From Polytrichum commune (Eukaryota > Streptophyta > Polytrichopsida > Polytrichales > Polytrichaceae), in NCBI GenBank assembly GCA_950295325.1, contig OX485808.1, positions 15,148,527 through 15,212,526 on the forward strand: DNA of 64,000 bases, given 5' to 3'. Positions 14,331 through 43,649 of the stretch are shown piece by piece (position 1 is the first letter of the stretch; each line of letters opens with the position of its first letter). The position numbers and the translations under genes are program-made. The notes beneath the pieces are model-generated. The model did no database searches. It was given only the letters and a program-made list of their open reading frames with translations, and was not told the origin of the DNA.

Positions 14331-15537
14331 GAAGATGTGTGTGTGTGGGTCAGTTTTTAATAATTGATTAAAATATTGTTGTTGTGATCAATTATGATTC
14401 CTCAACTCATCATAGTGCAGTGCGGTTCGCATATGACATTTGAGTCAAGCTCCGAAGAAGGACAAAGTGCACGACATCATGGTATTTTGCTGCAGCCTGT
14501 AACAAATCACTAGCTGCTATCAAGATGCAGCAGCTTGTCAACAATCATTGAAGTAGTCCTCCGCGTCCTTTCGATGGTTCCTGCTGCAGCATCGGGTCCT
14601 CCGCCTCATCAGAATCCCCCACAAAATCGTTGGTTAGAGCTGTGACACCTCATTCTGCAACAGAAAATGAAACCAGATCTCAGTTGCTGCAAGGTGAATT
14701 TTGATCCTGGATGTGAGACATACTAACCCTGGTTGCAATTAACATCTTGCAGTGATTACCCACTCAACATCGAATTGAAACTAACATGTGCACAAGGCCA
14801 ACATAAGTAACAGCCTACTAAATTTTGATGAGTTTGTGCTTCATTGACTCATTGCAAGTGACTTATTATAACTTTTAATAATGCAATACAGTCAATAGAG
14901 AACTTAACGGCGGTGCTGAAACTTGCAAGCAGCAAATCTGACTACAAGGGATTATGTTGATACTCACCGTACAATAGAAGGACTAGGCCTCGCCCAAGGC
15001 TTCAGTACTCAGTAGCATCCCATGTGTAGCAGGCTTAGAGCTAAGAGCATGACCCTGCTGCTTCCCCGGCACAACATGAAGGGTAGAGAGGACAACCCTG
15101 CTGCAGCGATGTCGATGATCTCCTCTAAGGAAAACTCAGCCCTTTTTATAGTATATGATTGCAGGCTCAAGGTTCAGTTAGCTTCCGCATCTGGCGGTTG
15201 GGAGTTGTAAGAACGAATCAATCCATCAACCCCGTTGATTGTGAGAGTTAGCATTGTCCCGTTGTTCTTTGTTGTTGCTTACGCACTTAATTGCGATAGC
15301 GAGCGAGAGAGAGGAAGGAATGTGGTCAACAACTACGGGCTCATGTGGTACACTTTTACGATAAGTAGCTGGCCGTAAATGCATCGCCTTGTCACATTCA
15401 TTCGCTCTCTCTAGTTCTAACTCGGTTATCAATCGTGTATCGTACTCTCCTGCAGGGATTTTCTGCGAGACAGACATTTCGGGGGTAGATTCCTATTTCG
15501 TGGCCAGGATCCTCCCACGGATGGTTGCATGGAGGTG
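14331..15537. other. upstream region of PPO, no gene seen
   Basis: This is 5' flanking sequence of the polyphenol oxidase gene and presumably holds its promoter. I cannot point to a convincing TATA box or operator. Short open frames carry no family signature. Confidence 0.35.
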
Positions 15538-26450: not shown

Positions 26451-27569
26451 AGATTTATGAATCCACCTGTAAATCAACTACAGTATGTGTTACCCTAAGT
26501 CAACCGCTTCAAGATTTATAACAATTCCCATGTTCATGATACTTTTATAAAAGAGTTGCATTGTCCTTACGACATGTTTCTATTTGCTAGGAAAAAACAT
26601 GATGCTATTACTCCTCCTACACAGATGCAAACTCTCTTCTTCTATCGCTTATATATAGGTGCCTCAACCGTAAAGTTGGGGTGTGTGCTAGATAGGCCCA
26701 ATATGAGAGCCAAAATGGCTGGCTGGGGTTTGCCTTTTAAGCAACACTTTCTGGTAAGGACTTTACTCTCCAAACTGTCTGTGCCCAAACTTTCCTTTCC
26801 TTTGGAGCCTTTGAAGTTCATTGACTCCCTTGTAAAGAGGGGTGTAGCTTTACCGAGATTCTAAAGCTCTTCGACACAAAAACTTGCACCAAAGTCATCA
26901 CCCAAACACTCGTGGGAGGCCGACTGCCTTGCCCTTCTTTCCAGATGCCGTAGTTAGGTTTGAGGGACCTACCCAAAGCATTTGTTGCACCCTGCGACAC
27001 AATTCTTGTTTTGAAAATAAAGAGTTCATGTCGCAGACATATACATAGAATCACGAAAAGTGTTGGGGTTCCAAATCTCTTTGTCGTATTCCCTCTACCC
27101 GTCCATGTATTGCTGCATTTTTTTAATGTCGCAATTCATCGGGTACTTGAATCAGTGCTTTTACCCGCTGAGTACATGAAAAATGATGCTAAGATAGATG
27201 TCTGATGCACCTAAGGAGGGTGAGGGTTATTCAGTTTGTTTTGATGTTCTCCAACTACTAAACACTATATTCGGTAATTGGAGACTTTTTGTTGATTTTG
27301 AGACTATTTAAGGACGTGGCTTTCACATTTGTAGGAAGGAAAACACTAAAAATATGCTATGTTCCCAATTTTGGAAACAAATAAGAGACTCAAATGCATG
27401 GAACCACACATAAAAATAAGAAAATGGGATATATGAAAACATTTGCATATGGAAAATCAATATCATATTTATTGAATAGGGGTTGAAGTACAAAATACAA
27501 GTGGAATATCCAATATTAGGCGAAAGTCCTAGAAACATAATTCCACAACTACATGTATGTTAATATAGC

Positions 27570-28418
27570 CTATACGTTCGGATCATGATTACGACTCACT
27601 ACTTTTGCTTTTGCAATACTATTATTAGCATTTATGGCCGTTTCACGTTCTTTTGCTTTCATGGCCTCCATGGCTCTAAAGATCTCGGGTCCGCGGCTAA
27701 AACCTTGTGTATTTGTCGACCCCGAATATGTGCCATTTGCCCATATTTGCCGACCCCCTACCGAATAAGTGGAATACGAATGCGATTGGGAAAACGAACG
27801 TCTTTCACTCTTCCGTAGGGCCAAACAACGATCAGACTCGCAAGAAGCAGTCTTCAGTGTTCGCCTATCCAATGACGAAGTCGAGGATGAACGGCCCACA
27901 TTCATGTGTATTGGGGTCTGAAACAATGACCATAAATACATATAATGATGTGGGTTAGTATAAGTTACGGATGGAAGTCCGAAAAACCCAATAATATAAA
28001 ATGCACTAATCCACGGAAATCATGAAGAAAAAACTTGAGAATGCCAATAATTGGGCACCTTGGCCTGCGGGGCGGTGGTTTGAGCTTCTGCGACATCGAG
28101 GGGGGCCACAAGCACAACAGGGACGCTCGTAAACGCCGGGACACCAATTTGGGGTTCATCCATACAAAGGCGTCTGGTCGACCGCGGGTTTCGAACGTGC
28201 TTCTCATTGCGGAGGGGAGATGGAGATGGAGATGGAGCGTAATTGAGTTTTGCAACCTTTGGAGGAGGGCTATCGACAACTCCGTCTTCAAACCCCGAGT
28301 CTTTGGAGTAATCAACAGCAGAGGCGGCATCGACGGCAGAAAATTGAAATAGTGAAGGCATTGAAATGTCGGTCACACGGATGGAAGGGGAGCTGGGGCC
28401 CGGTTTAGATGCACACAT
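27570..28418 (-). CDS. Pro/Ser-rich protein of unknown function, 2 exons, within the giant element
   Basis: I do not recognise a family. My model uses ATG at 28418, exon 1 28418-28059 (donor AAG/GTGCCC), and exon 2 27917-27570 (acceptor TTTCAG). This gives 708 nt and 235 aa in continuous phase. The first exon has SPSPSPLRN and VDSPPPKVAKL. The second is Ser/Arg-rich, then EIFRAMEAMKAKERETA, a possible short helix. The frame is also open up to an acceptor at 28455, so a further 5' exon is possible. The donor is not ideal; AAG/GTTTTT at 28041 is stronger by sequence but breaks phase. It lies just downstream of, and co-oriented with, the phosphatase gene. Confidence 0.45.
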
Positions 28419-28542
28419 GCCATGGACGAGACTTTGGGATCCTTGGTGAGGCAACTAAGACACAAAAATACATTTACAAAATACGGGGAGAAATGTTAGA
28501 TATAAACATGGAGAGTCCAAGTACAAACCCAAAAAGCAGTTA

Positions 28543-29262
28543 TCATATTAATTTATTGAGTTTGGCATAGCCGTACAACCTCCTAAATTCCTCATCTCTT
28601 GGGCCTAGAGGCCTATTGCCAATGGGGTTGGAGAGGACAAAATCCGGGACACTTCCGGGGTGATAGGCAAGCCTCCTAATGTAGGGTCCTAGTTCATTCT
28701 CTAGAAAGTTGTCATTTCTATCACTCTCCCAAGGATCCGGGAATATGCAACTGCCCAGGGGATTGAGAATACTCTTTGCCGGGCTGTCGTCAATGAGGAG
28801 CGTGTTCTCCGGGGTGGGCCAACAACCGTGGGGCACCCCCTCCAACATAGGGACGCCCACCCAAAGGTTCTTCCTCAGTACCTTTAGGAATTGAGGCCCT
28901 CGGCCTCCTCCGACCTTGGGTACAATGTTGCCATTACGGTCATAAAGGTCATCGCAGTGTTCTTGACCGAGAAGCAAGCATGGCATTGCGAGTTCTCGGA
29001 AAAGGAAACCGACGATGGCCTTCGTGTTGTCCATAAGCATAGAGCTCCAGATGATGACATGGGCCAAGCCAAGGACATCACGAAGGAAGCACCTCAACCC
29101 CGGCCGGGCCCGTACAACCTTCTTGTTAATGAGAGTATCGAACTGTCCGCCGTAATCCATGTCTTGTGGACTACGGAAGGGACCCTTCAACGCACTATTG
29201 GAGATATGCATGGAATGACAAAGCACCCCATTGAGGTCAAATATTATGAACGGTTTCCTCAT
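28543..29262 (-). CDS. FCP1/SCP-like HAD-family phosphatase, within the giant element
   Basis: A single open frame of 239 aa. HAD motif I is FDLNG at 8-12: the nucleophile Asp is kept, but the second Asp of the usual DxDG is Asn. Motif II is IIWSS at 70-74 and the late motif is LLIDDSPAKS at 155-164, as in FCP1-homology (CTD small phosphatase, NIF-like) proteins, which act on phospho-Ser/Thr. From memory, a DLNG version exists among plant HAD proteins, so it is not proof of inactivity. The frame stays open upstream to 29310 after an acceptor (ATCACAG), so the true start may be in an earlier exon that I cannot place. Presence inside a transposon suggests captured host cargo or an element regulatory gene. 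Confidence 0.75.
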   Translation of the reverse strand: MRKPFIIFDLNGVLCHSMHISNSALKGPFRSPQDMDYGGQFDTLINKKVVRARPGLRCFLRDVLGLAHVIIWSSMLMDNTKAIVGFLFRELAMPCLLLGQEHCDDLYDRNGNIVPKVGGGRGPQFLKVLRKNLWVGVPMLEGVPHGCWPTPENTLLIDDSPAKSILNPLGSCIFPDPWESDRNDNFLENELGPYIRRLAYHPGSVPDFVLSNPIGNRPLGPRDEEFRRLYGYAKLNKLI

Positions 29263-29478
29263 GGGCCGGCTTGGTCTTTCAGCGGGGTTGCGACATATCT
29301 CCGACGGACCCTGTGATGGAAAATACTATCTAGGTGAATGGTACTACCCATGAAAACCAATTGACAAGCATGCACAAACTCAACAAACAAATATAAGGCA
29401 AAAAGAATACTAATACGCAGTTCAAAAAATTTGTATTAATGTGATTGGTTTAATACATTTCGCGAATAATTTACATTG

Positions 29479-32400
29479 TCACAAAAGGTCTCCCCTAAAA
29501 CTAATTGAATCTATGCTGGCAAAATTGCATCCACCCGCCGGGCGAAGCCGAGCATCGAACTCGACAATATGCACACGCCACGAAGTTGGCAGACAAGGAA
29601 GTTTCGGACGCGCGTCCGTAACGTGGGAGGCAAGCTCAAAGGTGGATTACCTCTTCAGCGGAGAGGCCCTCGCCAGCAGTGCCTCCCTCACCAGGCCCCA
29701 TCGTGGGCACAGGTTCCGGACGCGTGTCCGCAAAATTGTGCATGCTATCCTCCACCACCAAGGCGCCTCCAGCCGCTTGCGACCCCTGGGTATCGACATG
29801 AGGTTGATCTTCATCTGTGGTGTCTTGGCTGCCCCGCATATGTTCATCTTCTTGGCTGCCCCGCATATGTTCATCCTCTTGGCTGCCAATGGTTGTGATG
29901 TCTTCAATGGCGCCTTTCTCGTGAGCACCTGCCGTATAACGTGCAGGTCTCTCCTCCTCTTGTACGCTATGAGAGGAGGGCTTTGGGGTGTCGGCAACCT
30001 GGGGAGAGGGCGGGACATACAAGGCGGGGGGTGGATAGGTATGCTCTGGTATGTACACCGTATGGCTACTAGACGGAGGCCGCATGAGAGTGGGAGGCAT
30101 TGACATGCCGGCTTCGGGAGCTGCATACATTACTGGGGGTCTTGCTTGCAAGCTCTGCATGAGGCTCATAAATTGTTGGCTCTGGGCCAAGAATTGTTGA
30201 TTTTGAGCCATGAGATCGGCGTGCCTTCTAGCAGACTCCAACCTAGCCTCCTCCATCTCAGCTTGGATGGCGGCCATCTTTCTGGCGTGCTCCTCGTTAG
30301 CTTCTCGAAGCCGTTGGTCAAGCTCTTCCTTCATTCTCTTCTCCAGTTTCTCGTCCAATTCGGCCACAGACATCGGCTCTTTCTTCACCTTGCCAGGTTC
30401 AGAAGGCAACGCAGAGAGGGCATTGTACATCCTAACCTCATCCTCGTCTTCATCGGAGAGTTCCAAGACGGCGCCTTCAGGGTACTCGTTGTAAGGAGTC
30501 TTCTTCCTCTGTCGACGACTCTCACGGTATGAGGCGATATCCGGCCTCAAAATCAACTCCAGCACATCTCTACCCTCCATAGGTGGTAGCTCTGCCTGTT
30601 CAGATCCCCCTCCAGATGAGGCTGTGCATCCGGCTTCTGTCGCAACGTCCACATCCTTCTCTGCCATAAGCCCAGCAGCACGCGATGGAACCGCAGTGGA
30701 AGGAAACCCAACTCGAGAAGTGGGAGTCCCAAAGGGAGAGGAAATAGGGGTAGGATGGACCCTTATTGGAGTGAAGTCTTCCTGCGCCCCCTCTGTATCC
30801 ATGTGGTCTTCGCCCAAGACAAATTGATGAGGATGAACAGGATCACGAACAAGGCCGGGCACGTGATCTTGTCTGGCTGGCTGCTCTCTTGGGGAGACGG
30901 GCTCTTGGTCTCCGTCACTGTCCCACTCCGTCGCAGGAGTTCCCTCTTCTCTTGAGGCAAGAGGCACCACAGGATGGGGGGTAAGGACATCGATGATGTC
31001 TTCGATATCCATTTTCGAGGCAAGAACCCTATGAGTATTCGCCTCATCCATGTCGCAAGCCTCCACAAACGAATTTACCTGCAACCCAAGCATCTGCACC
31101 AAAACAAGGAAATTATAGTCATTCCATTGTTGCAAGCAAGTATGAGGACAAATATAATCATGAAGCACTGCAATTTACGGACGCGCGGCCGTAAATTTAC
31201 ACTGCATATTTGTGTGGCCAATGTTACGGACGCGCGGCCGTAAATTTCAATTCAGATGAACCATGGAAAGAGGTGCATACAAGTACTTACCAATGCCGCA
31301 TAAACAAATTTGGTGCCTCCGAAGACGTTGTAAACTGTTTCACTCATCACAGTCACAGCCTTCAAGACTCCAATATAAAAATCCATTCGGAGCTCGTACG
31401 CCGGGTAGATTGCATACATAGTCTCCGCGATAAGCTCCTTGGGGTGTGGTGGTGGCAACGAGTATACTTTCTTGAACACGTTCTGCGCTTTGATAGGCAT
31501 CCGCCCACTTGGTGAAGACTTGTGTGTCAAGAAATAAAGTGCCAAAGCCCCGACCTGCTTCGCCCCTCTTGCCTCTTCAATAACACTGATCCCTTCCGTC
31601 TTCGCGGGGATGTATGTGCTGTGGTAAAGATCGTATTGGAGGTTCATCGTCGATGTGTAAAGCTGGACGACCGATGCGGACCTCTCTTGATCTACGATCC
31701 AGAGCCACACATTTGGCTCGAAGAGGGCAGGCGACCGATAGCTCTTGAAGGCCTTGAAGAAGTTGTCATAGAAAGCGGTCCCGCTAGCGTTTTGTCTCCA
31801 AGATCCGGGAAATGCACGGAAATCAAATAGTGCGAACGGACAACCCCGGGGGTCATCTCTCACAGAGGCTCTTGAAGCATGTGTGTCCCATGTGCCAAAC
31901 TTCAAGGCCGTTGTAACAGTGCAGAATCTTGCGACCCCTTCGAATTTTGCTTTCTTTTTTCTGTCAAGGAAATGGACGTACAACGCCGTCTCTCTTTCGT
32001 CGATAGACCCTTTCTTCTCGTTCCTCCTAGATCTTTGGGCTAGGAAGGGAGATGCGCCTCTTATCAATGATCGCATGGAGACCCCATTGATGTGATATTC
32101 CTCCTTGAGCGTCCTCCAGTTTTCCCACATTATTTCACCATCTGTATCAGTGAGGTTATGGGAGGGCAACAGCTTGCTAATTTCCCTTATAGCCATGGTC
32201 TTCTTCTTCCTGTATTCGCACCATTCCTTAATGTGGTACGTGGAAGGCTTCATGTGCTTCGGCCGCTTCAGGAAGATTTTGGGGTAGGGCAGTGTCCTCC
32301 TCGGAGTCTCCAATAGGATGTGTTGTGCCGCTCTGTACAGTTCGGAGTCGAGCAATCCTTGGAGGGGACGAAAGAACTCTCTCAGGATAGGTGGCACCTT

Positions 32401-34014
32401 AACCTTCGAGTCGCTCTTGTACGTGTTTTCTGCATCCGGATTGATAAGGTCTCCGTTGTTGTGGGCATCGAATAGGCGCAACCAAATTGCCCAGGTCTCT
32501 TCTGTGGCGGTGATGAGCTTAAGTTCCCCCTTCAGCTCCTGCACCGTCTTCATGCCGCTTGTCTTCAAGTCAATGCTGGAGAACTTTGTCAAGATGGCAT
32601 TGCTGAATGTCTGCAATGCCATGTATTACAAGAAATCAGCAGAGCTTAAATCAAAGGAATTAAAGAATTGGAAGGAGATGGGAAGAAATTTACGGACGCG
32701 CGTCCGTAAAATTATACTGAGACATACCTGCCATTTGGGATTCTTGATGACTGCATTCTCCCTCTCTTTTGGGGGACAATCGTGCTCTACCCACAAGGTC
32801 CTTCCAGCCACGATGTTGGCAGCCCATGAAGCCTCGAACTGCCTCACTTTATTCCCTTGGTTCATGAAGGCAGATATTGCGATGAGCTGGTTCGAGTCTT
32901 TGGAATGGACAACGAATGCCTTCCAGTATCGGATTGTCTCTTTCAAAGGGCTCTTCCACTCATCGTCCTCTAGGAGAGCTTTTGCAGCCATCACACTATG
33001 TTGGCCGTCGACTATGTAGAACTCTCCATCTTTGAGAATTGGCCAGTTTTGCGCTGTGACTTCAACCACAGGATCCTTTGGTGTCACACATATGGTTTGC
33101 CTATCAAATTTGGGGTTGTTCATAATGTTATTCATTTGCCACCACACCCCGGTCTCTTCTTTGGCACGAGTATTCATACTCTCCGTGCCCTTGTGGCATT
33201 TGTAGACATCCACATCAAACGTGAAATATCTTCCAAGTGGCCAGCAGCCCTTTGTCTTCTCGTCGAACTCTTGGAAAATCTTTGTGGAAAGTTCGGCGTC
33301 AGGGCGTTGTCCTTTCTTCAGGAGTGGTGCGACAGTAAGAGTAGAGCTCACATCTGGACCCTCTGTTAGCCCTGACGACTCCATCTGTGAGTGGGAGCGT
33401 TTACTAGTCTGCTTGCTCCCTCTTGATGCCCCACTCTGTGAGGGTCTCGAGGCTTCTGGCACGTGTTTAGGAACACGTTTAGGTCGTTCAGGAACTGGTT
33501 TTTTTGCCTTTCATTTCTTGGCTTCCAGTAATGCCCCATTTACTCTTGTCACATTGTTCAAGAGACGTCCAAGCCGTTTACCCGTCCAGGGTGCATTGCA
33601 TGCATAGTCTTGGAATTCATTCTGTAAATTGAAGCAAGACGCATCTGGGCTGGCATTTTCACATTCATTTTTGTTGAACGGATGGTACAACTCGTGCAAA
33701 ATGAATGTGATCCTATCATTTTTCTTTTCAAGGTCAATGACAACATAATCACCTTGGGCTACCGCACACTCTACTGTCCAGTTTTTTACCTTCATCCACT
33801 TCTCGGATTCATGTATATCTACTTTTATTTGATAGGCAAATCTAAGGACAAATATATCATTTTCGTCTTTTTCTACAATAACTGTCCAGTTATCTACAAT
33901 GTCTTCGCGTGGCTTGTAATGGTCGTTGTGGCTTATGTCTTTGATGGCTTTTGGAAGCGGAGGATGGACAAGCTCTGCGAATAAATCAATAGCGGGTCTT
34001 TTTGTAGATTCCAT
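29479..34014 (-). CDS. large ParB-like (DGQHS) / coiled-coil protein of the giant element, 4 exons, one in-frame TGA
   Basis: Exons 34014-32728, 32610-31291, 31093-29651 and 29559-29479 join in phase 0 throughout, giving 1377 codons including one internal TGA and the terminal TGA. The first 167 codons are of unknown fold. After an in-frame TGA at 33513-33511 the frame continues KAKKPVPERPKRVPKH. Codons about 333-340 read YIVDGQHS, like the ParB/DGQHR nucleotide-binding or nuclease motif. Exon 2 (ALFDFRAFPGSW, NVWLWIVDQ) is unrecognised. Exon 3 has acidic patches, a long coiled coil (KLEKRMKEELDQRLREANEE...) and a GSQEDEHMR tandem repeat. Every intron (117, 197 and 91 bp) contains the CGGACGCGCGTCCG-type palindrome. 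The TGA could be a nonsense mutation, a spliced-out site (GTAAAT upstream, CCAG downstream) or readthrough. The last exon is the least sure. Confidence 0.6.
29605..29618. repeat. palindrome core, intron 3 of the ParB-like gene
   Basis: CGGACGCGCGTCCG, flanked by ttt and ta. A second, weaker copy (CGGACGCGTGTCCG, 29717-29730) lies inside exon 3 and is translated as part of FADTRPEP. Confidence 0.85.
31172..31248. repeat. two palindromes in intron 2 of the ParB-like gene
   Basis: Cores cggacgcgcggccg at 31178-31191 and 31227-31240, both with ttac/gtaa arms. They carry the same single change (GTCC to GGCC), so one may be a duplicate of the other. Confidence 0.85.
32687..32714. repeat. palindrome in intron 1 of the ParB-like gene
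   Basis: A perfect core at 32693-32706 with aatttac/gtaaaatt arms, inside a 117-bp intron (32611-32727). Confidence 0.85.
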
Positions 34015-34068
34015 CTGCAAATGTAAAATATACAAGTCAGTATTAAGGTCTGGGGATGCAGAGCCTAT

Positions 34069-34670
34069 CTTACGAACGCGCGGTCGTAAACCTTTGCGTA
34101 CCCTTTCCTATATAGTACATGTCAAATTTACGGACGCATGTCCGTAAACTTGAGACATCTTATAAAAAGAAATCACATACATGATATATGTGCAGAGTTT
34201 ACGGACGCGCGTCCGTAAACTCTGCACATATATCATCCAAAAGTTTCTATTTCTATATTCCATGAATATAATATGTTTTTTATTATTATGTAGCCCTAAT
34301 TTACGGACGTGCGTCCGTAAATTCTTGGAAAATAAGTTCATTTTTGTTGTGTAGAACTTGTATATTTTGTAGAACTTATTTTGAAAACCCATGACATGTA
34401 TTATACTCTGAGATTTTCATAGCTTTTGCTGCCTAGTTTACGGACGCGCGTCCGTAAACTCTGCACATGTATCATGTACCACATTTAGTGTACTTAGATA
34501 TTTCAAGTTTACGGACGCACGTCCGTAAACTTATCATTCATGTTTTTAAATAGTTCTTTTTAAATATATCTACAATTTACGGACGTACGTCCGTAAACTG
34601 TTCACACATAGTGCGATGCATATTCCCAGGGTTCCCTGAAGTTTACGGACGCGCGTCCGTAAACTTCAGG
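34069..34670. repeat. array of eight palindromes upstream of the ParB-like gene
   Basis: Cores at 34073, 34131, 34202, 34304, 34441, 34512, 34580 and 34646, about 60-135 bp apart. The copy at 34181-34236 is a perfect 56-bp palindrome and that at 34635-34670 a perfect 36-bp one. Variants are mostly CG to TG or CA at the central CpGs. The location directly upstream of the start at 34014 suggests a promoter or binding-site array. Confidence 0.9.
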
Positions 34671-35470
34671 CCATTTTTTAATTACTTTGCACAATTACTG
34701 TGTTTCTGGATATTGCTCCGAAATTTTCGGAACAGGTTTTTTGTTGCATTCCATTCATGTGCAATGTTCATCTTTACTTGGAATGCAACATGGATTTGCA
34801 CTCCAAATTAGAATATATCAGGTGTTGCATTGCAATAGCAGATTCTACACTCCAAACTAAGAAGAATGTTCCATTTCAATTTGCAATGTACTAGAAACAC
34901 TTACCTTTGTACAATGTTTGCTGCTCAACCACAGCTACAGCTAGGACAGACTGCAAATTAACAATAAAATTGAAGTTAGAAACCTCTGGTAATGCAATGT
35001 GCACATTCAAGATTCAACTAAACTGTGTGTTGCTCCTAAAATGCATCAAACCCACCAAAAAAACCCTACTACAAAGATTGCACTGGATTGAACATTGACA
35101 TCAGATAGAAGTGAACAAAGCAAAACATATGATTTCTTAGAACTTGGAAAAAGTGAATTCAAATGAAGTGAAGACAATTACAAACTGAAAGGAGGAGCAC
35201 TCTGAAACAACTGAAATACTCCAACCCTAAAACCCTTGCAACAACTGAAACTACTCCATTAATGTCCTAATGAGACTGCAAGCAAAAAACTACTCAATTT
35301 CTGATGTTACTTGCAATTGTGAGTGCAACAAAACATTGCATGCTCACACAATACTCACAATCCTCCTCTTGTGCATCAATACATAAACTCAAATCACCTA
35401 ATTAGCACCTGGAACAGCACATCTAGCAAAGAGGGAAAGAAAAAAACACCTGCCTGGAGCTCCTGGCGCT
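34671..35470. other. no gene; element-internal spacer
   Basis: AT-rich sequence between the palindrome array and the purine tract. Short frames have no signature. Confidence 0.35.
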
Positions 35471-35479
35471 CTTATGGAA

Positions 35480-35760
35480 CTAAGAGCAAGGAGGAGGAGA
35501 AACAACAAAGGAAGAGCAAGGAGGAGGAGGAGGAGAAGGAGGACCAGCAAGGGAGAAGGAGGACCAATAATAGTAGCAAGGGAGAAGGAGGAGAAGGAGC
35601 AGCAGCAGCAAGGGAGAAGGAGGAGAAGGAGGAGCAGCAAGGGCGAGGAGCAAGGGCGAGGAGGAAAGGAACGATGGTGGGCGAGGAGGAAAGGAGCGAA
35701 AGGGAGTAAGCGAAAGGAGCAAAATGAGCAAAAAGGAGCGAAAGGAGCAAAGAGCAAGGG
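35480..35760 (+). repeat. 280-bp polypurine (GAG/GAA-rich) tract
   Basis: Almost uninterrupted A/G on the + strand, built from gaggag, gagaagg and agcaagg units. It produces artificial open frames on both strands; I do not call them genes. Such tracts can form triplex DNA. Confidence 0.85.
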
Positions 35761-35765
35761 AGTGT

Positions 35766-35787
35766 ATCGAAACCCTAAACCCTAAAC
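35766..35787. repeat. telomere-like repeat (CCCTAAA x2)
   Basis: aaaccctaaaccctaaac, the complement of plant TTTAGGG telomere units, at the edge of the polypurine tract. Confidence 0.75.
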
Positions 35788-35888
35788 GTCACATCCACTC
35801 CCTACCTAGACGTCCCATCAACCCGCGCCCAAAGGCCACATGTAACCCTTACGTGGCATATGTCTATTGGTCTATTTTGTGATTGCTA

Positions 35889-36345
35889 GAGTCCACCCTC
35901 GATAAATGTTACACTTCCACATGTTAACTCATAATTGTATTTGTTAACAAATTCGTACTCCTCTCATATTGCTAACTAGAATGTAAACTTTGTTACATGT
36001 TAAGAATAATTTATTCCCCTCTTTGTTAATTTGCCACTTATAAATGTTAACCTACGAACTACATCCAATATTGTGAGATGACATCCATTACATTGAGTCA
36101 CAACCTTTCAAAGTGGCAAAAGCCACCAAATTTGACTTTTGTGATCAAATTATTAATATGGGTTATATTGTGATTGATACACATATTTTATAATTTATAA
36201 TTTTGCAAAACTCTCCCTCCATAATTGTAATGAATCAAATTTGTTAAGCATTCAAAAAGCTCCCTTTATAGTTGTTACAATGTTAACTCACAATAAATGT
36301 AAGGAAAATTATATTCTAGAGCATAACATTTATAGAGGATGGATT
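35889..36345. mobile_element. pogo-like MITE nested in the giant element
   Basis: Ends GAGTCCACCCTCGATAAATG and, on the reverse, CAATCCATCCTCTATAAATG, with TA on both sides (35887-35888, 36346-36347). Same family as 928-1466. Confidence 0.7.
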
Positions 36346-39040
36346 GTATGTGGTGAGTCCAAAAACGAATACCAAAAACAATTGCTGACAAAAAATAAAG
36401 GAATCTCAATGCTCAAATTATAATAACCATCTAGGCCCAATAGTAAACATAATTTTGAAGTATGGGTTGAGGTTGAGTAACTCAAGTGTAAGATTTTCTT
36501 TGTGGACTTGTTGTAATATGAAGGTAAGCGGGCTTTAAATTACTAGTACACTAAATATTATAAGTAGTATTGCTTAATATTTAGAATTATGGAATGCTAT
36601 ATTAACTATTCATTGTATATTATGTCATTGGCATCAATTAAATAACATCAATAATAAAAAAGATAAAGCATTTTGTAATTTTTTACCACAAAGGTGGGAT
36701 TCAAATGCAATTGGGACAATAATATACCCATTGGCCAAAAATTCAATTAACCCTAAACCCCTACACCCTTATGAATCCCTCAATTATCGCAATAATTTGT
36801 GAAAGGGGATTTTCAACCTAAATTATACTATCAATAGCAACTTGGGGACTTTATTGAAGTTGGACACTTGGGATGCTTTGATGTGAATATCATTATTAAT
36901 GATATTTAAATTAAGCATGTTTGAAACACAATTAACAAAACCAAACATCGAGATAATATGGGTTAAGATCAAATGCTTATAATATCTTAAACAACGTTAG
37001 GGGTTAATTCAATCCCTCTGCACATAGGTCTAAGCTTGTATTAGAACAAAAGGAATGGGTAGGTGTTGAATTTACATCCCTCTTGTCCATTAAACAACCT
37101 TCAGGATTCATGCAATCCTTCCAAACCTAGGCATGAGCTTGTATTATCGCCTATAAGTAGTAGCAAATTGTTGTTTATATTGGAGTTTTGTTTCCACGAC
37201 ATGTATGGTTGTGTTAAGTATTCGATTATAGAATACCAATATATGATGTTCAAAACCTATCTTCAAAAGTAAAGGTTTAAAGCAAATGGATAAATATGAC
37301 TTAGAACATAACTTTGATGATCTTAAATGTTTTGAAGGCTTAATTGTTTTCATATTGTATCCCATCAAAGAATAACAAGTCTCGGCTAAATCTTGTACTT
37401 GCCTCTAAGGGGTGGATTTTACCCAGGCAAACAAAGATTAAAAAAATGAAAGGTAAGGTTACGCAACCCATGTACCTTTTTCCTTAGCCAAATTAAGACC
37501 ACATATCGGATTGCCATTCACAATTTGATAAATCTTTGTTCTATGTCACCTACTTTTTCACCACTTACCATGTCTTCAAGAATAATTTGTAAACATAAAT
37601 TTGCTTGACTTTTGAAATCTTGATGGTTTTGTTTTAGAGAATTTTAAGCCTTGACATGAGTCGGGAGTCGTTTATACGGTTTAGGGTTTAGGGTTTAGGG
37701 TTAAGAGTATCCCCCTTGTGTCACCGACTTAATATTGGTTGCCTTATTACTATTTAGATACCCTACCCTCCCTTTCTGTCCATTATATTTTATGGGTTAA
37801 TAGTATTACATAGAACAACAATTGGTATAATTGTTTGCTTGCTTGTTTTGAATTACTTTCCACTTAAGCCTTGACATGTATCAGGAGTTGTTCAGTTAAC
37901 CATGCTTGCATCTCTATGTCCATATGTTTGTTTAGGTTTGGGTGGTTATAGGGTTTAGGGTTGAGGGTAAGAATGTTACTTGGAGCAACAATTGGTATTG
38001 TTTGAGCATTAATTAATGTAGGTAATGTACATGAGGTACTAAAATATGTTTTTCCTCACGTATAGTACATGAAGAAGGCTAGTATAATTAGTTTTTTTGA
38101 AGTAAATGTTGATGTACGGAAGGGGCCCCTAAGGTTTAGAGAGAAAATTGATAATATTGAATTTAATGCAACCCATGTTACCTAGGACAATAGATGTGCT
38201 ACTATCATGGCCTTACGGTAATCAAAGTTTCTGTATCAGATTTGAATACAATTATGTATAGGTGTGTATAGGTGGGTAAATTAAAAATGTTGGATGGTTA
38301 GGTGGTGGCCAATGTAATTATAATATTAAATGCAAGATGAGAGGAGATAGCATGATATTATGGTCAATACCATTACATTGTATGCAAAACAATAAAGTAG
38401 TTGCTAATTTAATTTTGATTACATGTATTTTTATACTCCATGTACTATTGTTGTTGCTAATTTAATTTTGTTGTCTACGTTTTTTTAAATGTACTCTTCA
38501 TATTAGGTACTCCAATATTATAAACCACCCCTCAACAATGTTTATTGCTCATATAATATTAGCCAATTTACTTTGTTGTATACCACAAATACATAGATGC
38601 CTTTTTCTTTGTCATTATGTGGACTCATGGTCTATGCATGTAGTCCACATGAATACACATTCCATTGTAAGGCTGGCACACGGAATGTAGTAATGCTAGG
38701 TTTGTATTTATAGGACATAGTTGGTGGCTGGTATCCTATGTTGGAAAACGGATCCAAGGTAAAGCGATCAGTACTTAAGGGGACACCCCCCACCGTCGGG
38801 ACTCTTTTTGCATCTCAGCTGTGGGTTGCGCTCTTGTAGTGTGCTCCTGCTACAGATTTTGTGCAGGTAAAGATCCTATTGCAATGGACCTATTATACCC
38901 TAAACCCAAAGTCCTGAGCCCATTAGGGTACACAATTTGTATTTGGGTTGCACTCTCCTTGTAGTGTGCTGATTTTTTTAAAATTTCGGACAGTTATCCT
39001 TTCTGGTGCAATGATCCTATTTTCACGCCGCAAATCACGG
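36346..39040. other. no gene; central spacer of the giant element
   Basis: AT-rich spacer between the two divergent genes. It includes a solo left end of the ACTACACTAAATAT MITE family near 36545 (tacactaaatattataagta) and a telomere-like tract at 37676-37703. No coding frame is supported. Confidence 0.4.
37676..37703 (+). repeat. telomere-like repeat (TTTAGGG x3)
   Basis: ggtttagggtttagggttta and onward, ending ttaag. A degenerate piece (tagggtttagggttgaggg) lies near 37950. Confidence 0.8.
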
Positions 39041-39042
39041 AG

Positions 39043-39880
39043 ATTTCCGAACGCGCGTCCGTAAACCTTAAACATATTGGTTCATTGAACCTTTATTTGT
39101 TTTAGCCAATACTCATGTACGTTGAGGTTTACGGACGCGCGTCCGTAAGCCTGCATACCTTTGGTGCTATAGTTCTGTAGGTCACCTACACCACCTGTCG
39201 TGTAGAGCACCACAACGACAATATATTACCATGGAAGTTTACGGACGCGCGTCCGTAAACCCCTTGGCGCGTTGGACATTGTATTTAGGCTAGTAATGAT
39301 GTCCACAGAGGTGTATTCCATCGATCACTGTCTTTATGCTAGGAATGAGGTCCACAGAGGTTTACGGACGCGCGTCCGTAAACCTGGAAATCTTTGTTAC
39401 CATAATGTGCCATGTAGACTGAGACTGCAGTGAGACTGTACGGTCATGAAGGGTTGGGAGCTCGCATCCCTTAGCCTACATCACCCTATGTGTCATACTA
39501 TAATAATTTGACAGTGATTAAACATTTTAGGAAGCGCGTATGGGCGTGTTCAAACCTCTTCAAATTTCATGAGTCGTCAGGCCTGTGTATACATGGCCGT
39601 GTTTGGAGGACCTCTTGCTTCCTTGAACCTCTGTCTAGGACTACATTGATGTTTGTTATACGGATGTTTACGAACGTGCGTCCGTATACCTTTGTTTTGG
39701 TTGAGGGTTTAACTGAACTTTGTGTACGAGCCGATTTACGGATGCACGTCCATAAACCAGTGATGTTTTTTTTGCCTCCTCCTTTCCGCTCCTATGAACA
39801 CATCAATGTATCCGTATGCGCGTGTGCTTGCGCTGCTGATGTTATTACATGGAGGTATACGGACGCACGTTCGTATACCA
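39043..39880. repeat. array of seven palindromes upstream of the transposase gene
   Basis: Cores at 39048, 39132, 39242, 39365, 39671, 39739 and 39860. The first four are near perfect; the last three carry CG-to-TG/CA or single changes. The array ends about 150 bp before the transposase ATG, mirroring the array before the ParB-like gene. Confidence 0.9.
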
Positions 39881-40022
39881 ATGTTAGCTTTGTTTTCAAG
39901 CCATGAAATCCACTAGTGTTCACATTGTGTTTCATTGACAATAATAAGCGTTAGAGCTATCCATGACATTTATTGAATGGGATATTTTGACATACTCTTC
40001 ATTTGGCTCTCTTGTAGTGGCC

Positions 40023-43000
40023 ATGGATTCCAACGTCAGTGATAGTGGGGTTGATTTTTCGTCGGAAGCGTCAAGCTATGCTAGCGAGTTTGAAGTTGTC
40101 GTGGAACAAGAAACTACAATTGGTGTCGCCAATGTAGAGGATGAATTCCTCCCACCATGTGAGGGTTATTCCCGGGAGCAGTGGATTGATCTTGATGTCT
40201 TCCTCCTCAATGGATGTGGCGTCCCCGTGGCCGATGGTGTTTGTCGGAACTCGAATCCTACGGATTGTATTGATGCAAATCCCCTTGGGGAAGAAGATGT
40301 GGGGGTGTGCATTTTGAATTCCTTACATCTGTTGGAAGTGCCTTTTGGTTGGAGATTCTCTCTTCGTCGATGGCCGTTGCGCAGTGTTCTTCATGATGGT
40401 GTCAGCTTGTGGAATCATTCCCGCCGTTTTGATCAAATGCAATCGGCATTGTTCTCCACAATGCGCCCTAGAATGGGTCGGCATAAATATGATTCCGTTC
40501 GTTTGCCTCGTGAACCCACGCAACGTCGTCGAGATCAAACATTGGGAGATGCATCTATTAGGTCCGTAGCAACAAAGGATTGTTGTGCAAAGAGATGTTG
40601 CCAACTATTTCCCCGTGACAAGATCAAATCTTTGAGACAAGAGATGTGGCTCGCGGACTTTCGTATGCGATCTGCAAAGAAACTTGAAGTCCATCGCAAC
40701 ATGCATCTTGATGTCGAAGGTCGTAAGGTTGTGACCTTGGAAAATGTCGAGATATGTTACAAGGCATGGTACATTATACATGCAGTTTCAAAGGCAGATT
40801 TTTATAGGTTCCGGAACTACTCGATGCAAGGACGCCGTTCTCGGTTCCATGGCAACTCTGGCACAAAGAAGCCTAGGGAGGCAACACTCCAAGCGGCTGC
40901 AACACTATCAACCATCATTATGCCATTGGCAGATGCGATGCCACACAAGACGCGAACTCTGCCGTCGGGGGAAAAGGTTGTTCAGATGGTTTTGCCTACA
41001 GGGACAAAATGGAAGAACATACTTATGGATGTTAATGAAGTTGGCGAAAAGGCTGGATGTGGGCCGATTTCGTTGTCAAAATTGAGTGTGATCAAGAATC
41101 AACGATTCGCAGAATACATTACGAAGAGACCTGGGGATAAGTTTGCCAGGTGTTCTGCTTGTGAGAAATATAAAGGCCTTCGAGATGCACATCCCATTGG
41201 GACTAAGTCCCACAACCGACATCAACTGAAATACATTGAGCATGTCAACAACCAGGAGGCACACCGTCAAGACTACTACAAGAATCGCGCATTATCGATA
41301 ATGAGGCCGAATGAAGTTTTGACAATCATTCATGACAAAATGGACCATGCAAAGACGGCGTGCCCTTGTTATGCGCGGAAAATAAAGGCTACAGATGGAT
41401 ATTTCAAGCTTCCAATATCTGTCACAGGTTTGTTGGTTTCCACATTTATTTTTTGCGCGCCCACATACTCATTGTTAAGATTTACGGATGTACGTCCGTA
41501 AGTGTACATTTTTTTGCTTGCTTGGGGAAATTTTTGAATTTCATTCATATATACGATTTGTGTGGCTAAATGCAGGTATGATCGCACATGGTCATGTGGA
41601 CGTGAAATATGCACATTATGGCTTGGATTTCTATCCTGGCGACGCCAATCATACCGTAGGGTCTTTTGCAAAACTTCTACGAGATCTTGAGAGTCCGCCC
41701 ACATCATCCTCTCGTGCTCTTTTTGTTGGATGTGGAACAACACCGATTTATGAGGCTGTGCTAGAGGGGAAGGAGGTTTGCCTATCTTCACTGCAAGAAC
41801 CGCCTGAACAACCCGTTCTTGCTAAACCTTTGCCTCCAACTCTACACGTGCAACTTGACAATTGTGCCAAGGACAACAAATGTCGATACGTATTTTGTTT
41901 TTGGTCATTGCTCGTAGCCAAGGGCATTTTCAAAGAAGTGTTTGTGTCTTTTTTTATGGTTGGCCACACGCACGATGACATTGACGCTTCATTCGGACGT
42001 TGGAGTATGAAGTTGCACGAGGAGGATTTTCCCACAATTCCTCTTCTCATGAAATCGTACATGGATTTGGATAATGTGCCAGTCATCCCGCATTTGATTG
42101 AAGAAATGCCCGATTTCAAATCGTTTATCAAACCATTCATTCTTAAGGGAGGTGACCGCTTAGTGGGCCATACCAAGGCTCAACAATTCCGATTCTATAT
42201 GTGTGATGATGGTCTGCCGGCCATGCAATTCAAAGTTTTGTGTACCTCCCCGAATTGGGGCCCAGAGGAAGGGATACTCGTATGGCGCCAAAACGAAGAT
42301 GGCAAATGTATGCTACCTGATGGGGAGCCGAAGCCCTGCAAACCCAACCCCATGAGGAATGGACCAGAAATCATCAAAGGTATATCTGGATTCATCGAGT
42401 ACTGGAAAGATTTGTGCGAGGAAGACATCACAAGACGTGTTCGGGATACCCACGAACCATTGATTGCGTATTGGAATCGCATCCGCTCAGCGTTGCTAGC
42501 ACCCGAAGACGATAGACCATCATGTTTGACACAAGGTTTTTGGCCACTAAGCCGAGTGACAATCGTGGAATCTGAGGCCATGTTCTTCAACAATGGGGAC
42601 GTTCGTGAAGAGTTCGCGGCGGACGACCATTATGTTGGCCCTGCTCGTAATCGCCCGGCTCCATCATTTCGTGTGGCTATTGATTGCTACGAAGGTTATA
42701 TGGTCCTCGTACGTCCTGGAGATGAGGAACATCCTAAACCGATTTGGTTGGTGAAAGCATTGTCATCACCAAATTTTGTTCCAACTAGCCCAAATTTTCG
42801 TCAAATTGAGGTGGAATATTGCCGTCCAAGCACCAAAGATCAAAATGTGCTCCGCACATATTTAGGGTGGGATACGAAAAAAGGTTTCAAATGGACAATG
42901 GACTCAGCATACGAACCAATATGGATAAACACGGATACCATACTTTGTGCTTGGAAACCACGCAAAGGTTCCAAAACTGAAACAATGACCATCCCCCAAA

Positions 43001-43098
43001 AACATATAGATTTTGCCAAAGACAACTTGGCACGTATTGCTGCTGCAGAAAACAATGTCGAGAATGGAAATGAAGCAGAAGATGAAGATGGTGAATGA
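40023..43098 (+). CDS. putative DDE/RNase-H-type transposase (DUF7869-like), 2 exons, in the giant element
   Basis: Exon 1 is 40023-41427 (donor ACAG/GT) and exon 2 is 41576-43098 (acceptor TGCAG). The total is 2928 nt and 975 aa, with the join reading SVTG-MIAHGHVDVKYAHYG. ATG 40023 has a strong context (gccATGG). A Cys-rich patch (CSACEKYKG, CPCYARK) precedes the core. VQLDNCAKDNK (D563) and VGHTHDDIDASF (598-608) give two acidic positions, as in proteins annotated from memory as DUF7869-like. A catalytic third acid cannot be fixed by eye. The tail is acidic (EAEDEDGE). The frame is intact, so the element may be young. The 148-bp intron contains one palindrome (41485-41498). Other reading: a domesticated or cargo protein. 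Confidence 0.75.
41485..41498. repeat. palindrome core in the transposase intron
   Basis: cggatgtacgtccg with ttta/taag arms, inside intron 41428-41575. Confidence 0.8.
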
Positions 43099-43208
43099 TA
43101 TTGACGTAGGTTTGGACCAAAGATATTTGAATGTGTATTGGTTTTTCATAAAATATATGACATTGGGGTCGAATACTATATTAGACACATTTTATAGCAA
43201 TTTTATAG

Positions 43209-43410
43209 ATTACAATTATATTGCATGGATGCATTGATTTACGGATGTGGAATCCAAATTTTTTTATGTTTGTGTTATTACGGATGTGGACCCTAAACTA
43301 TATAATTATATTGCATGGATGCATTGATTTACGGATGTGGAATCCAAATGTTTTTTATGTCTGTGTTTTTACGGATGTGGACCCTAAACTATATAATTAT
43401 ATTGCAGATG
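43209..43410 (+). repeat. tandem duplication of half-palindrome units near the right end of the giant element
   Basis: Two ~100-bp units, each with gatttacggatgtggaatcc and ttacggatgtggaccc. The left half of the palindrome (ttacggatg) is kept and the right half is lost. It lies between the transposase stop and the right terminal repeat. Confidence 0.7.
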
Positions 43411-43649
43411 CTAATTTGCAATTTCGTGTCATTGGAATATTGTGTTGGCATAGTTTTGATTATCAACTGAATAATTACTATATTTAGAAACATATATATT
43501 CATCACATATGGATCTTTAAAACATTATGTTGCCATTGTTCCCCATGTTCCCCATGTTCGCTACGTTCACAATATTCGCATCCGAAACTACGGGTCCAAT
43601 TTATTTTGAGACTTTCCAAAGTCTCCAATTAACGAATATAGTGTTACTA

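What the first reader, a model, noticed from the sequence alone, without database searches (positions are those of the whole stretch)
29601..41502. About 21 copies of a CGGACGCGCGTCCG palindrome confined to the element
Seen: 22-28-bp palindromes with ttta/taaa arms, in two arrays (34.07-34.67 and 39.04-39.88 kb) directly upstream of the two divergent large genes, plus introns and one coding copy. I found none outside 29.6-43.4 kb. Such a density of one palindrome looks like a binding-site array for an element-encoded protein or a methylation/silencing switch.
Basis: partly seen in the sequence, partly recalled or inferred. Interest (0 to 1): 0.9.

Follow-up and report, generated by a model that had tools for sequence, protein, structure and literature searches.

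The report
Transposon with one palindrome throughout introns
A large family of DNA transposons in a moss-like plant genome carries copies of its own 22-letter palindrome in its introns and hardly anywhere else, which looks like a set of docking sites for a protein that the transposon itself makes.

The parts
27261..27288 (+). left terminal inverted repeat AACACTATATTCGGTAATTGGAGACTTT; preceded by ACTA (27257-27260), a possible 4-bp target duplication
   Evidence: the repeat finder I11, 96% complementary; flanks read
43618..43645 (-). right terminal inverted repeat; followed by ACTA (43646-43649)
   Evidence: 14 of 14 forward-strand loci (window's own included) match 28 of 28 and then differ (the 16 reverse-strand loci were scanned in the wrong orientation and say nothing)
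40023..41427 (+). right gene, exon 1 (putative transposase, 975 aa with exon 2)
   Evidence: homologues
41576..43098 (+). right gene, exon 2, DUF7869 domain (PF25273)
   Evidence: Pfam E 8.8e-39; 85 scored genomic copies at 92-100%, window included
41428..41575 (+). right gene intron 2, holds one palindrome
   Evidence: GT-AG, frame kept; homologues without the intron join at the same place
38867..40017 (+). predicted 5'UTR intron of the right gene, holds 7 palindromes
   Evidence: GCAG|GTAAAG ... TTGTAG; chosen by eye, no transcript evidence
33511..34014 (-). left gene, exon 1 first part; in-frame stop at 33511-33513 in this copy
   Evidence: the relative P0074 is open there
32728..33510 (-). 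left gene, exon 1 second part; DGQHS ParB-like motif
   Evidence: PHROG ParB-like E 0.023, Pfam DUF6551 E 0.24 here and 0.03 in P0074: weak
31291..32610 (-). left gene, exon 2; residues 223-440 modelled as an amino-methyltransferase-like fold
29651..31093 (-). left gene, exon 3; holds the only coding palindrome
   Evidence: ORF; splice choice inferred
28543..29310 (-). NIF/FCP1-like phosphatase domain, possibly the last exon of the left gene (in-frame splice)
   Evidence: PF03031 E 2.1e-11, above cut-off; donor/acceptor; fusion inferred
27570..28454 (-). small gene of two ORFs (28059-28454 and 27570-27917) around an intron
   Evidence: predicted only
34015..34904 (-). predicted 5'UTR intron of the left gene, holds 8 palindromes
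   Evidence: AAAG|GTAAGTG ... TTTGCAG; chosen by eye, no transcript evidence
32611..32727 (-). left intron A, 1 palindrome
   Evidence: site present in 29 of 30 loci
31094..31290 (-). left intron B, 2 palindromes
   Evidence: site(s) present in 30 of 30 loci
29311..29650 (-). predicted left intron C, 1 palindrome
   Evidence: inferred
27918..28058 (-). predicted intron of the small gene, 1 degenerate palindrome
   Evidence: inferred
27964..27985 (.). palindrome, degenerate (16/22)
29601..29622 (.). palindrome (19/22)
29713..29734 (.). palindrome (18/22), the only coding copy
31174..31195 (.). palindrome (21/22)
31223..31244 (.). palindrome (20/22)
32689..32710 (.). palindrome (22/22)
34069..34663 (.). 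array of 8 palindromes at 34069, 34127, 34198, 34300, 34437, 34508, 34576, 34642 (18-22 of 22)
39044..39877 (.). array of 7 palindromes at 39044, 39128, 39238, 39361, 39667, 39735, 39856 (18-22 of 22)
41481..41502 (.). palindrome (18/22) in right intron 2
43238..43381 (+). four subterminal repeats [TA]TTACGGATGTGGA at 43238, 43277, 43328, 43368 (a duplicated pair), each like one half-site of the palindrome
27307..27319 (+). left subterminal half-site TTTAAGGACGTGG

Best explanation
The palindromes are double-stranded DNA binding sites of two 10-bp half-sites (TTTACGGACG) around a free 2-bp spacer, read by a dimeric protein that the transposon itself encodes. The likeliest reader is the left-gene product (ParB-like motif, amino-methyltransferase-like fold, NIF/FCP1-like domain perhaps spliced on). 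Bound along the introns of the element's genes, in trans on every copy, this protein most likely keeps the element transcribable or unmethylated (anti-silencing or transcriptional activation, as VANC does in VANDAL). Single half-sites near the ends may let the same protein join the transposition complex, as TNPA does in Spm/En. SHOWN: restriction to the family as far as listed, non-coding placement, conservation, symmetric difference of both arms between protein clades, and arrays in tandem units. INFERRED: that a protein binds, which one, and what binding does.
Against: No binding, expression or methylation data. The fold match is moderate: Foldseek has no hit at E<=0.001 (best 0.01), its list also holds C5-methylases and, lower, acetyltransferases, and the usual catalytic [DNS]PP[YFW] (recalled) reads DFRxxP in the family. 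The ParB-like hits are all sub-threshold. Arm type is not strictly clade-bound: L065-L067, close to the GGAC clade (85% to the window), carry one exact GAAC-type site in the 5' region; P0092 is mixed; 11 of the 28 rows with a readable motif are frame-ambiguous. Right gene: 1 of 4 intron tails (P0021, p 0.003, GAAC-type) and 0 of 5 N-terminal stretches show a footprint. 16 of 48 left tails show none at p<=0.01. There are no sites in the 4 kb between the divergent genes, where an activator might be expected. The right 5' intron keeps CpGs outside the sites better (o/e 0.58) than the left (0.21). The four right-end half-sites are one duplicated pair, and at 2 mismatches half-sites are common outside the element (21).
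Confidence: 0.5

Rival explanations
1. The palindromes work as RNA hairpins in pre-mRNA: each intron carries one or more stems that regulate splicing or export of the element's transcripts.
For: 21 of 22 window sites are in introns as I predict them and none in about 4.9 kb of other non-coding DNA; both arms differ together between clades; some arms pair far beyond the consensus (34198, 34642).
Against: Mismatches show no transcript-strand bias (G.U 9, A.C 9). A 2-nt free spacer flanked by a mostly kept G and C does not make a usual hairpin loop. Arrays of 7-8 in one intron are more than a splice regulator would need. Half-sites without a partner lie near the ends.
Confidence: 0.2
2. The sites are target sites of the element's own methyltransferase-like protein: it modifies the palindrome (4mC or 6mA) and the mark itself protects or silences the element.
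For: Methyltransferase-like fold; enzymes of this class often act on palindromes (recalled); CpG retention at the sites.
Against: The expected catalytic motif reads DFRxxP (placement inferred); the 22-bp site is far longer than usual methylase targets (recalled); no modification data.
Confidence: 0.12
3. Host silencing or transcription factors read the palindrome; the element only carries it.
For: Nothing here shows an element protein binding.
Against: The motif is nearly private to the family as far as sites were placed, and arm type follows the clades of an element gene.
Confidence: 0.08
4. No function: the palindromes are by-products of strand-switching and tandem duplication in introns, which merely tolerate them.
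For: Tandem units of about 48, 95 and 135 bp carry them; two sites have long perfect arms beyond the consensus.
Against: 91% versus 58% identity between subfamilies; the same introns hold the motif in relatives at 48-89% protein identity; CpGs kept against decay.
Confidence: 0.05

Closest known systems
VANC-binding motifs of VANDAL elements, Arabidopsis (Hosaka et al. 2017, PMC5735166; abstract, Results part 1 and one further Results section read; follow-up PMC10398659, abstract and outline only)
   Same: Short motif repeated in introns and other non-coding parts of one TE family, growing by tandem repeats, differing between related families with different proteins; element-encoded reader.
   Different: VANDAL is a Mutator-type element (recalled) and its motif is the 9-bp YAGTATTAY, found also in intergenic and terminal regions. 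Here the site is a 22-bp palindrome, intronic as predicted, and the candidate reader is an unrelated methyltransferase-like protein. Anti-silencing is proven there and only inferred here.
TNPA/TNP1 sites of Spm/En, Tam1 and Tgmt* CACTA elements (PMC2613891; 12 passages read, abstract partly among them)
   Same: Large element with CACTA-like ends, a transposase and a DNA-binding function, repeated GC-rich/AT-rich motifs that may be methylation-sensitive; in Tgmt* the subterminal repeats can pair as stem-loops.
   Different: Those motifs are subterminal; here the full palindromes are internal and only single half-sites are subterminal. The right gene has DUF7869 and no Tnp2 match.
Cytosine methyltransferases captured by eukaryotic retrotransposons (PMC5890265; search listing only)
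   Same: A transposable element carrying a methyltransferase-type gene.
   Different: There C5-methyltransferases in retrotransposons; here an N6A/N4C-like fold, possibly inactive, in a DNA transposon.

Membership tests
CACTA (En/Spm) superfamily | termini beginning CACTA | tested here: not met
   14 of 14 forward-strand loci share the sequence out to ATAGTGTT, so ends read AACACTA; CACTA is two bases inside
CACTA (En/Spm) superfamily | 3-bp target-site duplication (as reported for Tgmt*) | tested here: inconclusive
   window flanks give a 4-bp ACTA match and no 3-bp match at CACTA ends; one insertion only
CACTA (En/Spm) superfamily | Tnp2-type transposase | tested here: not met
   only DUF7869 found in the right gene at E<=1; a relative, P0069, has a sub-threshold Transposase_23 (TNP1/EN/SPM) match, 19.9 of 21 bits
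CACTA (En/Spm) superfamily | subterminal repeats at both ends | tested here: inconclusive
   four repeats (a duplicated pair) at the right end, one related copy at the left
VANDAL / VANC | Mutator-like transposase (recalled) and VANC domains DUF1985, DUF287 | tested here: not met
   no such Pfam match in the nine element ORFs scanned at E<=1
VANDAL / VANC | element-specific motif clustered in non-coding parts and amplified in tandem | tested here: met
VANDAL / VANC | reader protein binds the motif and removes methylation | not testable with these tools
   no binding or methylome data
beta-class / MT-A70-like amino-methyltransferase | overall fold | tested here: met
beta-class / MT-A70-like amino-methyltransferase | catalytic [DNS]PP[YFW] motif (recalled) | tested here: inconclusive
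   family consensus at the expected place reads DFRxIPGAW, but the place was inferred from the order of strands, not from a residue alignment
ParB-like domain | significant profile match | tested here: not met
   best PHROG ParB-like E 0.023; Pfam DUF6551 E 0.03, below cut-off; the motif DGQHS is a recalled resemblance

The most novel reading that the evidence does not exclude
A DNA transposon has domesticated a ParB/methyltransferase-derived DNA-binding protein (fused to an FCP1-like domain) as its own anti-silencing factor, and wrote its palindromic address into its introns. Families in one genome have diverged into separate address types (GGAC and GAAC) that differ on both arms at once.
Probability: 0.3. 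Interest if true: 0.9.

Novelty: new variant of a known kind. Interest (0 to 1): 0.74.

Why it matters
In the papers I opened, VANC in VANDAL is the TE-encoded, sequence-specific anti-silencing system described. A second, unrelated system in a moss-like plant, with a defined 22-bp site, over a thousand exact copies, another family with a different site and a single candidate reader, would make TE-host arms races testable in another lineage. It would also offer a sequence-addressed handle on chromatin.

Tried and rejected
Rejected: chance; a general repeat of the genome, as far as sites were placed; RNA hairpin as first choice. Set aside, not excluded: promoter arrays (splice sites chosen by eye with the arrays in view).

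Led nowhere: AF2 of the long left protein from a shallow alignment (pLDDT 31.9); PDB sequence searches (nothing credible); exact palindrome and P0001 relatives in viral contigs (none); NCBIfam (none). The BFVD fold search gave no hit at E<=0.001, the best being phage methyltransferases. Paper searches for DUF7869 (0 papers), for CACTA in mosses, for palindromes in introns with a transposon-encoded protein, for ParB-like in eukaryotic TEs and for palindrome + moss + anti-silencing: nothing on this element in titles or abstracts listed. Linking the GAAC-type arrays to clade-B left genes in the own genome did not complete. The pattern of subterminal half-sites and the NIF copies did not complete. 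Six TIR pairs about 220 bp apart look like MITEs. Their DNA could not be fetched; one lies in the stretch of C1 covered by the palindrome list (35.05 Mb), where no exact site is listed.
Full report
WHAT IS THERE. The window holds a DNA transposon from 27261 to 43645, bounded by 28-bp inverted repeats that are 96% complementary and flanked by ACTA on both sides. In 14 of 14 forward-strand loci, the window's own included, the right end matches 28 of 28 and the flanks then differ (the 16 reverse-strand loci were scanned in the wrong orientation). The right gene (40023-41427 + 41576-43098, 975 aa) carries DUF7869 (E 8.8e-39). Its relatives include named proteins of the mosses Ceratodon and Physcomitrium and the liverwort Riccia, so the host is probably a moss; this is inference. 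The divergent left gene runs from 34014 to about 29651 on the minus strand in three exon blocks, with one in-frame stop in this copy; a relative (P0074) is open there. It may be spliced in frame to a NIF/FCP1-like phosphatase exon (28543-29310; PF03031 E 2.1e-11). A small third gene lies at 27570-28454.

THE PALINDROME. 22 sites match >=16/22 to TTTACGGACGCGCGTCCGTAAA, with a shuffle mean of 0.0. One of 22 is in coding sequence (binomial p 2e-6). With the splice sites that I predict, 21 of 22 lie in introns, all seven predicted introns hold at least one, and none of the other 4.9 kb of non-coding element DNA holds any. Part of this is circular: the two 5'UTR introns (15 sites), intron C and the small-gene intron (one site each) rest on splice consensus chosen by eye with the sites in view. 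Only left introns A and B and right intron 2 (4 sites) are backed by reading frame and homologues. Outside the palindromes, half-sites with <=1 mismatch occur at 27307, 43238, 43328 and 43368, all within 410 bp of the ends, and nowhere in the other 47.6 kb of the window. A fifth, at 43277, has 2 mismatches, a level also reached 21 times outside the element.

GENOME TEST. The genome has 407.8 Mb in 64 contigs. CGGACGCGCGTCCG occurs 1262 times, the reversed control 0 times. The 22-mer with free spacer occurs 1147 times (2.6e-4 expected at the window's base composition). Of the first 50 sites listed, all on contig C1, 49 lie within 15 kb of a scored left-gene copy, an area covering 1.3% of that 11.6 Mb. 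The 50th (L070) lies in a diverged element copy, 77-80% alike to the window's right-array region. The other sites were not placed. The family is large. 85 transposase copies were scored of 1869 candidates, at 92-100% identity, 67 of them without a stop in that exon; 96 left-gene copies were scored of 1172 candidates, at 77-100%. Both include the window. 64 of the 96 have a transposase in the divergent arrangement within 40 kb, 54 of them at 10.2-14.1 kb; 3 have another arrangement and 29 none among the 85 scored.

INTRONS AGAINST EXONS. In the 30 best left-gene loci (window included), intron A has the motif in 29 and intron B in 30. Totals are 104 sites in 10,222 intron bp and 0 in 112,705 exon bp; 30 more sites lie outside the measured exons and these two introns (threshold 18/22). 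Intron B holds two to six copies in units of about 48 bp. In a copy of another subfamily (L071), parts of the two arrays are built of 95-bp and 135-bp units, with no site in the 4.8 kb between them. Between subfamilies, the intron A palindrome is 91% identical, the rest of the intron 58% and the exon ends 90% (30 pairs from 11 of the 30 loci).

RELATIVES ELSEWHERE. DNA of other species was not available. However, metagenomic ORFs run past the exon into the intron, so their tails spell the intron in amino acids: LRTRVRK, FTDARP* and YGRASV are the palindrome in three frames. Of 53 homologues of exon 2, 41 reach the exon end. 38 C-tails and 10 N-tails were long enough to test. 32 of these 48 carry the palindrome at p<=0.01 against 300 shuffles each. 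At <=1 mismatch 19 fit the GGAC form, 26 the GAAC form and 30 either; among 284 random palindromes of the same arm composition the best fits 2. Relatives at 51-55% identity read FTNARS* and YERSFV, that is TTTACGAACG-NN-CGTTCGTAAA: both arms differ together. On a tree of 50 rows (49 of the 53 homologues were long enough, plus the window), 11 of 11 GAAC-type rows fall in one group (support 97/95) and 6 of 6 GGAC-type rows, window included, in the other (94/94). 11 rows are frame-ambiguous and 22 have no call. P0121, too short for the tree, reads GGAC-type. Against strict co-evolution, L065-L067, at 85% to the window, carry one exact GAAC-type site in the 5' region, and P0092 is mixed. The right gene is weak: 1 of 4 intron tails and 0 of 5 N-terminal stretches show a footprint. 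The own genome holds 2909 exact GAAC-type sites. The 86 listed fall in six clusters in the first 2.6 Mb of C1, where the GGAC-type list has no site before 25.4 Mb, so they belong to other elements. Whether those carry clade-B left genes did not complete.

DNA OR RNA. Arm mismatches are G.U 9, A.C 9 and other 13 of 242 pairs, with no transcript-strand preference. The two central bases vary while the flanking G and C mostly stay, which fits two protein half-sites better than a hairpin loop. CpG o/e of the left 5' intron is 1.31 with the sites and 0.21 without; of the right one 1.02 and 0.58. Of changes from the consensus in 21 sites, 15 fall on 210 CpG bases and all 15 are CpG-to-TpG/CpA; 22 fall on 252 other bases. 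So the sites seem to sit in methylated, decaying DNA and to be kept.

MECHANISM. Best reading: an element-encoded dimer binds the intronic palindromes of every copy and keeps the element transcribable, as VANC does by binding non-coding VANDAL DNA and causing methylation loss (PMC5735166, sections read). The half-sites near the ends may serve transposition, as TNPA sites do (PMC2613891, passages). Known pieces are thus combined in a new way. It is not filed as a member of VANDAL or of canonical CACTA, because defining features were tested and not met.

Noticed in passing
28543-29310 (minus strand): NIF/FCP1-like phosphatase domain inside the transposon, reading FDLNGV where FCP1-type enzymes have DxDx(T/V) (recalled), so perhaps inactive; possibly the last exon of the left gene.
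   Followed up: partly
own genome C1:640864-646078 and five more clusters to 2.54 Mb: 2909 exact GAAC-type palindromes in the same genome; those listed lie in clusters apart from the GGAC-type ones, suggesting a sister family with its own palindrome.
   Followed up: partly
own genome, e.g. C1:35049227-35049478, C1:55075624-55075875, C2:4390841-4391082: TIR pairs about 220 bp apart, likely MITEs of this element; 1303 and 1315 TIR matches on the two strands at up to 2 mismatches.
   Followed up: no
33511-33513: Single in-frame stop in the left gene of this copy; a metagenomic relative is open there.
   Followed up: partly
34181-34236: A 56-bp perfect palindrome extends far beyond the consensus arms, suggesting inverted duplication as a way the sites grow.
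   Followed up: no
13245-14387 (minus strand): Open tyrosinase/polyphenol oxidase reading frame with a PPO1_DWL domain, outside the transposon.
   Followed up: no
35520-35760: GAGGAG-rich low-complexity stretch between the divergent genes, perhaps 5' leader of the left gene.
   Followed up: no
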